This document shows, piece by piece, positions 7,301 through 27,450 of a stretch of DNA of 64,000 bases (positions are counted from its first letter, which is position 1; each line of letters opens with the position of its first letter). The position numbers and the translations under genes were made by a program. This DNA comes from Echinarachnius parma. Taxonomy: Eukaryota; Echinodermata; Echinoidea; Clypeasteroida; Echinarachniidae. The stretch is taken from the NCBI GenBank assembly GCA_037951105.1, contig JBAMJV010000861.1, forward strand, positions 1-64,000. The letters run 5' to 3'. A model generated the notes under the pieces. That model searched no databases and was not told where the DNA came from. It worked only from the letters and a program-made list of their open reading frames with translations.

Positions 7301-10300
7301 GTCAACATAGCTGCTATTATAATCGTTCAATCAAGGTCATATATATTGTTGATTTGAGGTTTTGATTTAGGAAATGTAAATGCTAGATCAAATATTTTGT
7401 TTGATTATGTATTGAATGATGAAGAACGGATGTATGAATTAATTATAACCCATGGCATACATAAACAGTTAATTGAATAAAGTATGTCATTAACTATTTG
7501 GAGCTCGTTTGGGAAGTCCCAAAGTTTATTGATGGATATGCTGATCACACTGCGTGGAAGTACCACCAAAGTCAACTTTACTTTGCCTCATCATCATTTT
7601 TATTTTAATCTCCACACAAACATTTTGTTCTACTTGCCCATTCGGGCAAGCAGAATCATAAGTGTTCAACTTTTACTTGCCCAAACAGAAAACTTACTTG
7701 CCCGCTTACTTTTAGATGAGATTTACTCATAAAGAATTACATTATTCTCTCCTAGTTTAGAGCAAAAATTAATTTGCCAAATCGGGCAATCAAACTGGAC
7801 CATTAATGAAATTTTACTTGCCCGACATCAATTTTTTTACTTGCCCCGGGCAATAGGGCAAGTGCTAGTGTTGAGCCTTGGAACAGTTTGCATTTTTAAT
7901 TCCATCTTGTTCTTCTTCAGATGTTGTTCAGAAGGAGACGCTGATCATGCTGCCTGGCAGCACCACCAAGGTCCTGCAGGCTATCATGGAGCTCAACACC
8001 ACCCTCAGCTCATGTGTCAAGCAAGAAGAGAGGTAAATAGTGACCCCTTCCTGTCATAACCCCCCACCCCCCCCCCCCCCCCCCCCCCCCCCCCCCCATT
8101 TTAAACCCCCTTCTCATCCTAATACCCCAAACCCTTTCCTAATACAATTTTAATGTAAAGTCTGTAGTCCCTGCAGGCCATCATGCATTGGAGTTCAACA
8201 CCACACTCAGCTCATGTGTCAAGCAAGAAGAGAGGTAAATAATGACCCCCTCCTGTCATAACCCCCCCCCCCCCCCCCTTGTAAACCCCCTTCTCATCTT
8301 AATACCCCAAACCCCTCCTAATACAATTCTGTAGTCCATGCAGGCCATCATGGAGCTCAACACCTAATACAATTCTGAAGTAAAGTCTGTAGTCCCTGCA
8401 GGCCATCATGCATTGGAGCTCAACACCACACTCAGCTCATGTGTCAAACAAGAAGAGAGGTAAATAATGACCCCCTCCTGTCATAACCCCCCCCCCCCCC
8501 TTGTAAACCCCCTTCTCATCCTAATACCCCAAACTGGAGGTATTGCAATCCCTCCTGATACAAGGCTGCTGTCCCTGCTGGTGATCATGGAGCATCAACA
8601 CCAGCGAAAAATTATTTTATTTTTTGGGGATTTTGGGGATTTTTTTGGGGGATTTTCTGTTTGGATCGTGATCAAATGCTTATAAGATGATCACTTACAG
8701 CATTAGAGCATAATAGTAGCCCATGAAATTCGAAAAAGAGCCCGGAAATTTGTAGCCCCCGAAAGTTGGAAAAGTAGCCCCCGAAATAAAAATATTAATT
8801 TTTTCGCTGATCAACACCACACTCAGCTCACGTGTCAAGCAAGAAAAGAGGTAAATAATGACCCCCTTCTCATCTCACTTCTACCACACCTACCATCCCC
8901 AAGCTGAGGGTAAATTGTGCAATATAACTAATAATTTGATGCAGGCATAGAGTGTGATGTAATGTGTATTAGGCTTTCATTTCCCCCTCAAATTTGGTGT
9001 TTATTGGAGGCATGAAGGAGGATTCCTAGTACTGAAGGGAAGAAAATTATATCACAACACCTCCTCGTAGACTATCATTGAGCTCAGCACCACAATTTGC
9101 TCATGCGTCAAGCAATAAGAGAGGTAAATAATGACCCCCTTCTCATCTCACCTCGCCCACTCCCACCCACACCCCACCCCTGCAAAGGAAATTATATCAC
9201 AATCCATCCTATATATTCACTGTTATGTCAGCATCAAGTCTACAGTCATGCAGGAGATTATTGAGCTCAGCACAATGATAAAGGTGACAATGAAGGATGG
9301 TATATTGGTACCAGATGGAAATTACCATAATTTATTGAACAAATAAGTGTGAATATGAAATAACCCGCCTCTCTCTATCTGCGCACCTTCAAAATGGAGG
9401 TATCTCGACCTTTTATAAAAACTAAGTCTAAAGTCTTGTAAGCAATCATTGATGTCATAACTGCACTCAGCGCATGTGTCAAGCCAGGGGAATGGGCATT
9501 CAATTCACCCCTTCCTCTCATAATCCCCATCCCCATCTCAACCCTCTTCTCATCAAAACTTCCTCCCATTTTCCCTCTGTACCCCCTACCATTATTAACA
9601 CCCCAAACTGGAGGTATTGCAACCCCTCTTCTGTTTACTTAAATGTCAAGTCTGAAGTCCTATAGGCATTTATAGAGATGGCCGCTACACTCAGCACATG
9701 TGTCAAGCATGGAGAATAGTAATTGAATTCCACCCTCCCCATCCTCCTCCGCTCTGCCTTAGGAGGATAGGTCTCCTCTGTCATTCCTCCAATAAACATC
9801 AAATTTGAGGGGGGAAATGAAAGCGTAACGCAAATTACATCACACTCTGGGCCTGCGTCAAATTAGTTTGTTATTGCACAATTTACCCTGTGCTTAGTAG
9901 GAGAAGGCTCACAACATAATACCAAAGTCAGATGAATTATACACACAGCAATCAACCTGCAGACAAATTGTTCTGTTCAACTCCCCGAAGAGCATTCCAG
10001 TTGGTCGGTTGGGTATCCTTTTCACTTTACCTATACCGCTGGGTTAAGAACAAACAGTTTTGATTTATAGATGTCTTGCAGAAGGAGCTTTAGTGACAGG
10101 CTAGGAGTCTTGAGCTCAGACCTTACAGTAGGAGCGCATCACCCAACCCACTTTGCCACAACAACTGATCCCTGAATAAAAATAGTCTTCCTAACCTACA
10201 CATCATGGCCTGGGAAGCAAACCAGATAACTTATAGTGGAAGGGCAGACTCCATAACCTCTCATATCTTAGTCATTGATTTGAAGTTAATATGGCATGTC

Positions 10301-13300
10301 TAATCCTGCTTCTGTCAACAAAAAATGAAGCGATGATAATTATTATCTTTGCAGAACCAACATCTCCAAACTTCTACCTCATGTACCAAATCCAAATGTC
10401 AGCAGCAGAGTCCGAGGGGAAATCAGGGAATGCACACCACACTAAGTGTGTGATTGGTTTCCTCTTGGCTTTCTACCTCTGTGATGAGCTGGTTTCTGAT
10501 CGCTTGGGCTACACCCATTCAGTCTACTTCTAATTTTGTCTTCAAGTACATAATGCCTGAAACTTTGATTTCCCCAATTTCAAAGTAGACATTCAATGTC
10601 AAATCTAAGTCTTAGTCTTAGTCTTAGTCTTAGTCTTAGTCTTGTCCTAATCCCTTATCTTTGTTCTAAGCAGTGAGCAAAATACTCTGGGACTCGGGGC
10701 GAATTCGCCCCCGAAATGCCAAAAAGAGCCCCCAAAAAATAAAAGAGCCCCTGTAAATTTGCATACAGTTCAATGCAAACTAAATTTTAAGGTGTTATTT
10801 TCATACAGGCAAGCTTTTTTTCCCCCTGATTCTAAGCTTCCAGAATCTTCAGGAAATGGGAGTAGACCAAATGGATGTGAATCAAGAGGCAGTTACTGAT
10901 GAGGTCTATTCTTACCTACCTATCACCTGCATCCCACCTTTCAAAATATCTAAACAATTCTGACCCTTTAATAAATGTCAATTCAATTACACTATGATGC
11001 CTGCTTCAAGCCAAAAAGAAAACAAAAAGTAGATGGCAAATTTTAAGCAAATTCAAGTTTGCATGTACTTCAATTTGCCTAAAAATTATCATCTATATAT
11101 TTAGGCTTTGTGTTGAGAACATGAGAACAGAAACAAAGTATTCTCACCCAAAGGACTCGTCTTCCCACCCATCCTTCCCATCACACAGGCAATTCCTGTA
11201 GGCTAATTTGCACAAATTTGACCCTGCTAATAAATGTTAATTCAATACTACTCTAATGAAAGCTTCAAGCAACATCAGCGTGACAAGAAAGATGGCACCC
11301 TTTTTTCTTTTCTAATCACATTCAAGTTCATTTATGGAAGCTTGCTCGAAGGTGAAAAGCTGAGGTGTGCCATTAAGAACGCAAACAAATTATTCACACC
11401 CAAAGGAAAGTTCAGTTTTACTCCTCCTCCTCCTTTTCCCCCCTTGCCAGGTAGTTTAACCCTTTAATGCTGGTTTAAGGAGATGACCATCAACTGACAT
11501 CGAACAACTAGTACTAGTTTTAGCACTCTCATACTGATGTATAAAGGATTTTCCATTCAACCATTTTTTCAATAATCTGTAAACCAGACATAACTTTAAA
11601 AAAAAAAAAATGCCCCAGTATTTTTTTTACAAGCGCACTATAACATTTGATCAAGGATTTTTATATCAAAATTACGAAGTGAAATGCGAATATATAGATT
11701 CCATACACCCAACTCCAGTATAATAACAAACTTGCCTCGAAAGAGTTATATTGCTCCGGCCTTCATTATAACGCCTGGCCTAGAATTTTGGGGCACCCCC
11801 TATTCTCAATGTGACATTTAATAACATGAATCCTTGAGGGGGTTACCGTTAGGGAAGGAAAGGGGATTCCATATTCTGATAATTTGGAGGTGAGAACACA
11901 AACAAATTACGGTATTTGCACCTCAAGGAATTTAAGCTCCAGTGCAATTTTAGTTTCTCCAGCATAAGGATGGCCATGTACTGTAACCTTCCTTTATATA
12001 TCCTTAAATGACTGTTGAAATATTAGCCTTGAGCTTTACAAAGTTGGAAATTAAAAGTATATTCCAAGACCTTGTGGAAGTTGGAGGGGTGACTGAAAAG
12101 GGGTTTTCAGAATATTTCTGTGATAACATAAAGCAAATCCCTCCCTCCACTTGACAGTAAAAGTCAACATTTCAATTTTCTCATCATTGTAAGCTTTAAT
12201 ATGATGCCTTCTTCTTAAACATATGACAATAATGAGCAAAGATATGATTGTTTCGGTTTGGCATACATAAGTCTTTTACATACATGTACATTATGTGAAG
12301 TTAAAATGCAAACTTCTTCAAAATATGAATTACTAACGGGTGCAGGGTAATGCTAGTATCCATTCACATATATCAACAGATTCTTCTGAATGATGTGAAA
12401 GTTTCATAAAAAAGTGTTGGATCACTTTAAAGTGTGTAGATTGAAATTATTATTCCCAGGGTTTAGAAAGGGCTGTCAGAACGCTGAAGCCCTCCCTCAG
12501 AAGGAGAAGTGTCTGCTTAATGTGACGTGCAAAGACTTGATGGGCAGAAATTTGATTACTGATGCTTGAAGCAACGTGCAAGACACATTATGACTGCTGG
12601 TTTGCCTTTGGGGGTTGAAACAAATGAAATTATGTAGAGAAATATGCAGAACTTACTCTGCACCGAATACAGTTGGTGCATTTAAAAAAAATTCTTTCAC
12701 ATTGTAAGATTCAACTGCATAGAAGTAAATGCACACACATCTATTTAACAGTTTTAATGAGGATGAAAATAGTTTGTAATTAATCTTAATTCAGGATTCA
12801 ACTTCCTTCTCTGTTGAATTTCTGTCAAAAATCATTATTCTTTTAACAACTGAATGTTTCTCATGGTTGAAAAATTAGGTGTAAGGATTTAACAAACATG
12901 TAACACATCAAGGTGATGGCCAATTTGTCTAAATTAGATACATGATTGATTGATTTATCCTAGAGCTAATTAGAGCATTCACAGCCATACATTGTTCTTG
13001 ATTGAAATGAATATGATTTCCTAATTGACACCATGCAGTGTACAAGGCTGAAAAGTGGAAGCCCTTGCCAACAAAACGGGAGGCCCTGCAATACTTGAAT
13101 CAATTGAGGAAGGTGCTGAGATATCTCAAGCTTTGACATGCACATGGTGCTTGATCATGCTTTTTAGAAGATTTTTGGTCTGGGCAAGGAAATTTTCAAA
13201 AAGTATTACAAAATTGTCCCCCGAGAACCGCCAAAATAGACAGGTGACCACTACTACAAAGTTTTCACAAAATCATGAATGGGTTTATACATTAACTAAT

Positions 13301-27109: not shown

Positions 27110-27450
27110 TTGCTTTGGATATCTGGGCCAGAAGGTCATGTGGCAGCTGGCAAAGGTCATCACACTTTGAAGGTCAATGAACTTAAGGGTTGCTGATTTT
27201 CACACATCCTGAATCTTTTCTTGACATATATCTTATCGAGGAACCTATGTGATAGCTTTCAAAGGTCATCAAACTATGAAGGTTATCAAACTTAAAGGGT
27301 CTCTGAACCCGAACGATCTGCTTTCACCCATTCTGAAATGTCTGTGCTGCATTAGGAACATAATTTGATCTATCTGAGTATCTCAACAAGAAGATAGTAA
27401 GACAGATGTCAACTGGAGTCAAATTTTGGAAGGTCATTTAAACTGTGAAG
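27110..27450 (+). repeat. Decayed copies of the RAPGEF1 terminal exon in the 3' UTR
   Basis: Segments at 27113-27178 (ATATCTGGGCCAGAAGG then CATGTGGCAGCTGGCAAAGG), 27228-27292 and, more weakly, 27370-27450 resemble the real exon end ATATCTGGACGAGGAGGCC then ATGTGGCAGCTGTCAAAGG. They yield many (A)AGGTCA hexamers. Confidence 0.7.

What the first reader, a model, noticed from the sequence alone, without database searches (positions are those of the whole stretch)
7536..27450. 'Exon echoes': local tandem copies of exon pieces beside at least seven RAPGEF1 exons
Exons b, g, l, m, p, s and t each have one or more partial copies within a few hundred bases. Copies usually include the exon tail, its donor and intron start, with unit sizes near 150-230 bp. 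Such recurrence in one gene is far beyond chance. It may reflect a high local tandem-duplication rate in this genome, visible only where exons give landmarks, or an assembly artefact at some sites.
Basis: seen in the sequence. Interest (0 to 1): 0.75.

Follow-up and report, generated by a model that had tools for sequence, protein, structure and literature searches.

The report
Tandem exon-edge duplications in urchin RAPGEF1
In a sea-urchin gene (RAPGEF1), seven of the twenty exons seen have decaying partial copies of themselves lying beside them, apparently left by repeated short tandem duplications of the exon's edge; the mutation type is ordinary, but its density in one gene and its link to exon edges deserve a genome-wide test.

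Summary
The window carries most of a sea-urchin RAPGEF1 gene (20 exons a-t in one open frame). Exons b, g, l, m, p, s and t each have local direct partial copies well above shuffles and distant controls (l only with its flank).
Best explanation: serial head-to-tail duplications of units of roughly 150-225 bp that straddle an exon edge. Copies of exon tails lie only downstream, copies of heads only upstream (8 of 8 groups), the layout that tandem duplication must leave if the gene is to stay intact. The copies look dead: eight keep a GT donor, but each of the seven donors tested would bring in stop codons.
Assembly error is unlikely: copies are graded in identity (61-96%), five of seven sites have three or more units, and an inserted element appears to split one array.
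'Exons are only landmarks' explains part. A simulation of that effect predicts 24-37% exon-touching loci in the gene; 7 of about 10 were seen (P 0.001-0.07, post hoc). The 36 kb downstream has four weak regions only. Whether exon edges are truly favoured needs a genome-wide survey, which I could not run.

The parts
4286..4346 (+). RAPGEF1 exon a (first exon recognised in the window; relatives have further residues upstream); no copies nearby
   Evidence: matches DVDKLKGSEKAVLTALKWFL of the Diadema protein and opens one frame with exons b-t; local score 60 equals the distant controls
7481..7594 (+). head copy upstream of exon b
   Evidence: 52/67 exon columns identical; one search score 151 against 124 (shuffles) and 118 (distant)
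7921..8032 (+). exon b (functional copy)
8166..8534 (+). two young tail+donor+intron copies of exon b (8166-8319, 8391-8534)
   Evidence: 59/64 exon columns each, 79/85 and 71/75 intron columns; 98% identical to each other; donors GTAAATAAT
8809..9180 (+). older tail copies of exon b (8809-8900, 9027-9180), donors still GTAAAT
   Evidence: 0.73 and 0.76 identity
9428..9794 (+). oldest tail copies of exon b (9428-9593, 9655-9794), donors decayed
   Evidence: 0.61 and 0.62 to exon b, 0.69 to each other; the second is not in the list of hits above cut-off
16570..16722 (+). head copy (acceptor AG plus exon start) upstream of exon g
   Evidence: 80/111 exon and 30/36 intron columns; one search score 239 against 154/164
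16799..16999 (+). exon g (functional copy)
20265..20690 (+). two intronic units carrying decayed copies of the AT-AC branch point/acceptor region and the start of exon l
   Evidence: 111/143 and 104/138 intron columns; cut-off passed by the match at 20248-20533
20741..20833 (+). exon l (functional copy), after an AT-AC intron
   Evidence: frame stays open with AT...AC splicing from exon k (ends 19214)
21249..21425 (+). exon m (functional copy)
21494..21616 (+). tail copy of exon m; 30 bp including the donor are missing
   Evidence: ungapped 73-bp core 92% identical
23351..23429 (+). exon p (functional copy)
23525..23847 (+). two tail+donor+C-rich intron copies of exon p (from 23525 and 23688) and a start of a third (about 23824)
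   Evidence: 0.95 and 0.96 identity; donors GTAAGC
25893..26027 (+). exon s (functional copy)
26155..26521 (+). two tail+donor+intron copies of exon s
   Evidence: 0.90 and 0.74 identity; donors GTGAGT
26848..26959 (+). exon t, last coding exon (stop codon 26957-26959)
27061..27499 (+). three decayed copies of the exon t end inside the 3' UTR (27061-27216, 27217-27349, 27367-27499)
   Evidence: 0.67, 0.63, 0.61 identity; only the match 27093-27307 was held against a cut-off
10902..11345 (+). comparison: intron-only local duplication in the same gene (no exon)
   Evidence: 122/165 aligned columns
19479..20251 (+). inserted element with inverted ends that appears to split the array leading to exon l
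   Evidence: ends align as an inverted repeat; 19306-19480 resembles 20304-20457 (106/143 columns, not tested against a control)

Best explanation
The copies are fossils of repeated short tandem duplications (unit roughly 150-225 bp) whose ends fell one inside an exon and one in the neighbouring intron. After each event the unit still joined to the rest of the exon kept its splice site and stays under selection. The other unit became intron (or 3' UTR) and decays neutrally. Repetition at one site pushes older copies outward, as at exon b. The likely molecular cause is replication slippage, template switching or unequal exchange, helped by C-rich or TTG-rich intron starts at b, p and s. Shown here: the copies, their orientation, layout, periodicity, grading and the stops that their donors would bring in. 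Inferred: neutrality, the molecular cause and the order of events.
For: Seven exons have direct local copies above controls. Layout is 8 of 8 as predicted, both sides having been searched: tail copies downstream (b, m, p, s, t), head copies upstream (b, g, l); non-tandem copying would place partial copies on either side. Young copies include intron sequence about as similar as the exon part (p d1 55/56 exon and 78/83 intron; b d1 59/64 and 79/85), so this is DNA-level copying, not reverse-transcribed mRNA. TRF reports p and s as arrays of period 162 and 184. Use of any of the seven copy donors tested adds stop codons. Identity falls with distance from the exon at b (0.89, 0.89, 0.73, 0.76, 0.61, 0.62; Spearman -0.87, P 0.024, 6 of 8 copies used), and also at s (0.90, 0.74) and t (0.67, 0.63, 0.61) (not tested).
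Against: The gradient with distance is not general: at l the nearer copy is 0.69 and the farther 0.71; at p they are 0.95 and 0.96. In simulation, randomly placed duplications predict 0.24-0.37 exon-touching loci within the gene, while 7 of 9-11 are seen (P 0.001-0.07; with the whole window as territory 0.09-0.10, P below 0.0001), so purely random placement is a poor fit if post-hoc choice is ignored. Exon-part and intron-part divergence are similar in young copies, whereas neutral decay of both intron copies should make introns diverge faster; the numbers are too small to decide. Not all local copying in the gene is direct: one search shows a strong non-exonic inverted pair inside the exon b cluster (about 8.85-9.05 and 9.75-9.95 kb, tile scores up to 359). 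Single-copy state in relatives was not shown.
Confidence: 0.85

Rival explanations
1. Exon edges (or the C- and TTG-rich intron starts next to donors) are real hot spots of tandem duplication in this genome, for instance through stalled forks, R-loops or folded C/G tracts at the exon-intron junction.
For: 7 of about 10 loci in the gene touch an exon against 0.24-0.37 expected after allowing for longer visibility. b, p and s, young multi-unit arrays, start in exon tails beside C-rich or TTG-rich tracts. Only four weak direct regions in 36 kb downstream.
Against: One gene, chosen because it looked so; few events. Pieces of two other genes in the window show none (4 of 4 pieces below the control maximum; one piece, 38789-38900, has no Pfam support as coding). 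Intron-only duplications exist in the same gene (10.9 kb, 3.6 kb). Exon tiles are not more often positive than intron tiles of the gene (11 of 71 against 59 of 280), though the intron tiles include the copies themselves.
Confidence: 0.15
2. Local copying during double-strand break repair (synthesis-dependent strand annealing), inserting nearby DNA, rather than tandem duplication.
For: Known to duplicate splice sites and partial exons in vertebrates (PMC2671141, abstract and section 10). It also gives short local copies. One non-exonic inverted local pair lies in the gene (8.9/9.8 kb).
Against: Head/tail layout is 8 of 8 as tandem geometry demands, all eight exon-copy groups are direct, and b, p and s are contiguous periodic arrays. 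That paper excludes pairs within 50 bp as tandem duplications.
Confidence: 0.08
3. Assembly error or uncollapsed haplotypes.
For: Poly-C tracts and 98% identical units (b d1/d2) are hard to assemble; copy numbers at b and p may be off.
Against: Five of seven sites have three or more units; copies other than those of p and the core of m are 10-39% diverged from their exon; copies differ by private insertions and deletions; an inserted element appears to sit within the l array.
Confidence: 0.04
4. Functional decoy splice sites or alternative exons kept by selection.
For: Eight copies at b, p and s keep a GT donor, including two only 73-76% identical to exon b.
Against: Tail copies are cut off before their own acceptor, so using them would extend the exon; all seven extensions tested carry stops (1-21 each; the donor of the copy at 8809 was not tested). 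The m copy lacks its donor and the two oldest b copies have decayed ones.
Confidence: 0.05

Closest known systems
Short local (paired) duplications, 'doublets', and minisatellite-type tandem arrays
   Same: Short, direct, close together, mostly intronic; graded divergence.
   Different: Here seven fall on exon edges of one gene and some recur at the same edge. The doublet papers are known to me from recall and from the citing passages of PMC2671141; the paper itself is not held.
Repair-mediated duplications by capture of nearby DNA (Pace et al. 2009, PMC2671141)
   Same: Local copies that include splice sites, UTRs and partial exons (4 'partial exon/intron' among 824 donors).
   Different: Those are insertions into transposable elements and exclude pairs within 50 bp as tandem; here b, p and s units are adjacent, direct and periodic.
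[quoted passage not shown] potato RdRp case, PMC4974935, passages read)
   Same: Tandem duplication across an exon-intron edge with copied splice signals.
   Different: No new intron is apparent here: the copies lie inside introns or the 3' UTR and the reading frame is unchanged.

Membership tests
Short tandem duplication | direct orientation next to the source | tested here: met
   all 8 groups direct; nearest copy about 150-225 bp away, except b-upstream at about 400 bp
Short tandem duplication | contiguous head-to-tail units with constant register | tested here: met
   b 202/225 (then 391, 273), p 151/162, s 181/184; the older groups g, l, m and t only approximately
Short tandem duplication | functional copy stays terminal: tail copies downstream, head copies upstream | tested here: met
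   8 of 8 groups
Short tandem duplication | single-copy state in an outgroup | not testable with these tools
   no echinoderm DNA collection among the tools; only proteins were found
Repair-mediated duplication (SDSA) | copy inserted away from its template (>50 bp), within a mobile element | tested here: not met
   b, p and s units adjoin one another; criterion. The older groups are less clear
Processed (reverse-transcribed) copy | introns absent, exons joined | tested here: not met
   copies of b, p and s with a donor include 49-102 aligned intron columns
Duplicated alternative exon | whole exon with both splice sites, open frame | tested here: not met
   all copies partial; extensions to the seven copy donors tested have stops
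Intron gain by tandem duplication | new intron absent from relatives | not tested
   gene structures of relatives were not available

The most novel reading that the evidence does not exclude
In this sea-urchin lineage exon-intron junctions are recurrent sites of tandem duplication. The same exon edge is copied again and again and older copies are carried outward, so that introns hold an ordered fossil record of their own exon and grow by it.
Probability: 0.12. Interest if true: 0.75.

Novelty: new member of a known kind. Interest (0 to 1): 0.4.

Why it matters
Exon-derived copies are useful clocks: one partner is held by selection, so local duplication can be dated and counted where intron-only events fade sooner. 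If exon edges prove to be favoured genome-wide, intron growth and spare splice sites would have a source worth study. If not, this gene is a clear worked example of ordinary short tandem duplication and of the layout that selection leaves.

Tried and rejected

Species: over exons b-t the protein is about equally close to Diadema antillarum (782/1055 aligned residues) and Lytechinus pictus (783/1040); OCIAD1 is 58% identical to Diadema setosum over 80% of its length. So I take it as an echinoid, genus unknown. No sister-species DNA could be compared.

Inverted copies: tested for all 19 exons b-t. Exons c and r slightly exceeded both controls. In 7.5-27.6 kb (600-bp reach) has 0 of 943 inverted tiles at score 150 or more; (1-kb reach, other gap costs) has 6 of 280 non-exon tiles of the gene, which lie in one inverted pair at about 8.85-9.05 and 9.75-9.95 kb.

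One search masked 120 bp beside each exon and therefore missed g and m; these rest. In one search the g alignment overlapped itself and was redone.

Locus counts: one search gives 12 merged regions at score 150 or more in 1-27.6 kb, 7 touching an exon. Joining partner regions (121/661 and 7921/9381) gives 10. The scripts computed P for 7 of 9 and 7 of 11 and for 7 of 8, 7 of 9 and 8 of 9, not for 7 of 10.

Papers: nine searches, of which I saw listings of titles and abstract openings only (20 of 130 papers listed). None of those mentioned exon-edge copies in sea urchins. Searches returned no paper. Read: PMC2671141 (abstract, sections 4, 10, 12 and passages) and PMC4974935 (passages); paper not held.
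Full report
What the locus is. The window holds exons a to t of a sea-urchin RAPGEF1 (C3G) gene: 20 exons from 4286 to 26959, joined by GT-AG introns save one, in one open frame of 1174 codons ending in a stop. Relatives have further residues upstream of exon a, so the gene probably starts outside the window. The RasGEF and RasGEF_N domains are present. The C-terminal 384 residues are 90% identical to Diadema antillarum and to Lytechinus pictus, and exons b-t as a whole are about equally far from both, so the genus is unresolved. The intron between exons k and l starts ATATCCTTT and ends CCCTTAACTGAGCCCCAC; the frame stays open with this AT-AC splicing. That it looks like a U12-type intron is my knowledge of the consensus, not a tool result.

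Noticed in passing
19215-20740: Intron k-l starts ATATCC and ends CCAC with a CCCTTAAC branch-like motif: an AT-AC, probably minor-class (U12) intron. The tandem units upstream carry decayed copies of that acceptor region.
   Followed up: partly
19479-20251: About 770-bp element with inverted ends that contain a G-run/C-run palindrome, inserted in the intron array.
   Followed up: partly
8851-9050 and 9751-9950: A strong non-exonic inverted pair (tile scores up to 359 and 344) inside the exon b cluster, just beyond two of the exon b copies.
   Followed up: no
26978-27035: A 16-bp tandem repeat (AAGGTCATTAAGCCTG) just after the stop codon resembles the last bases of exon t, perhaps a second, shorter scale of the same process.
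   Followed up: no
32409-32666: Perfect TGA trinucleotide array, 86 copies.
   Followed up: no
1976-2153 and 18556-18733: Two long TAGA/AGAT tetranucleotide arrays (44.5 copies each), the second starting 4 bp after exon j.
   Followed up: no
37363-37830: Exon of a short-chain dehydrogenase (adh_short, E 1.3e-20).
   Followed up: partly
50643-51444: OCIA-domain (OCIAD1-like) coding region. By eye, the end of the Diadema setosum protein resembles another frame of the window (51211-51444), so an intron, frame change or sequence error is possible.
   Followed up: no
62501-63600: Strong inverted repeat pair (464 of at most 500 per 100-bp tile), probably mobile-element arms.
   Followed up: no
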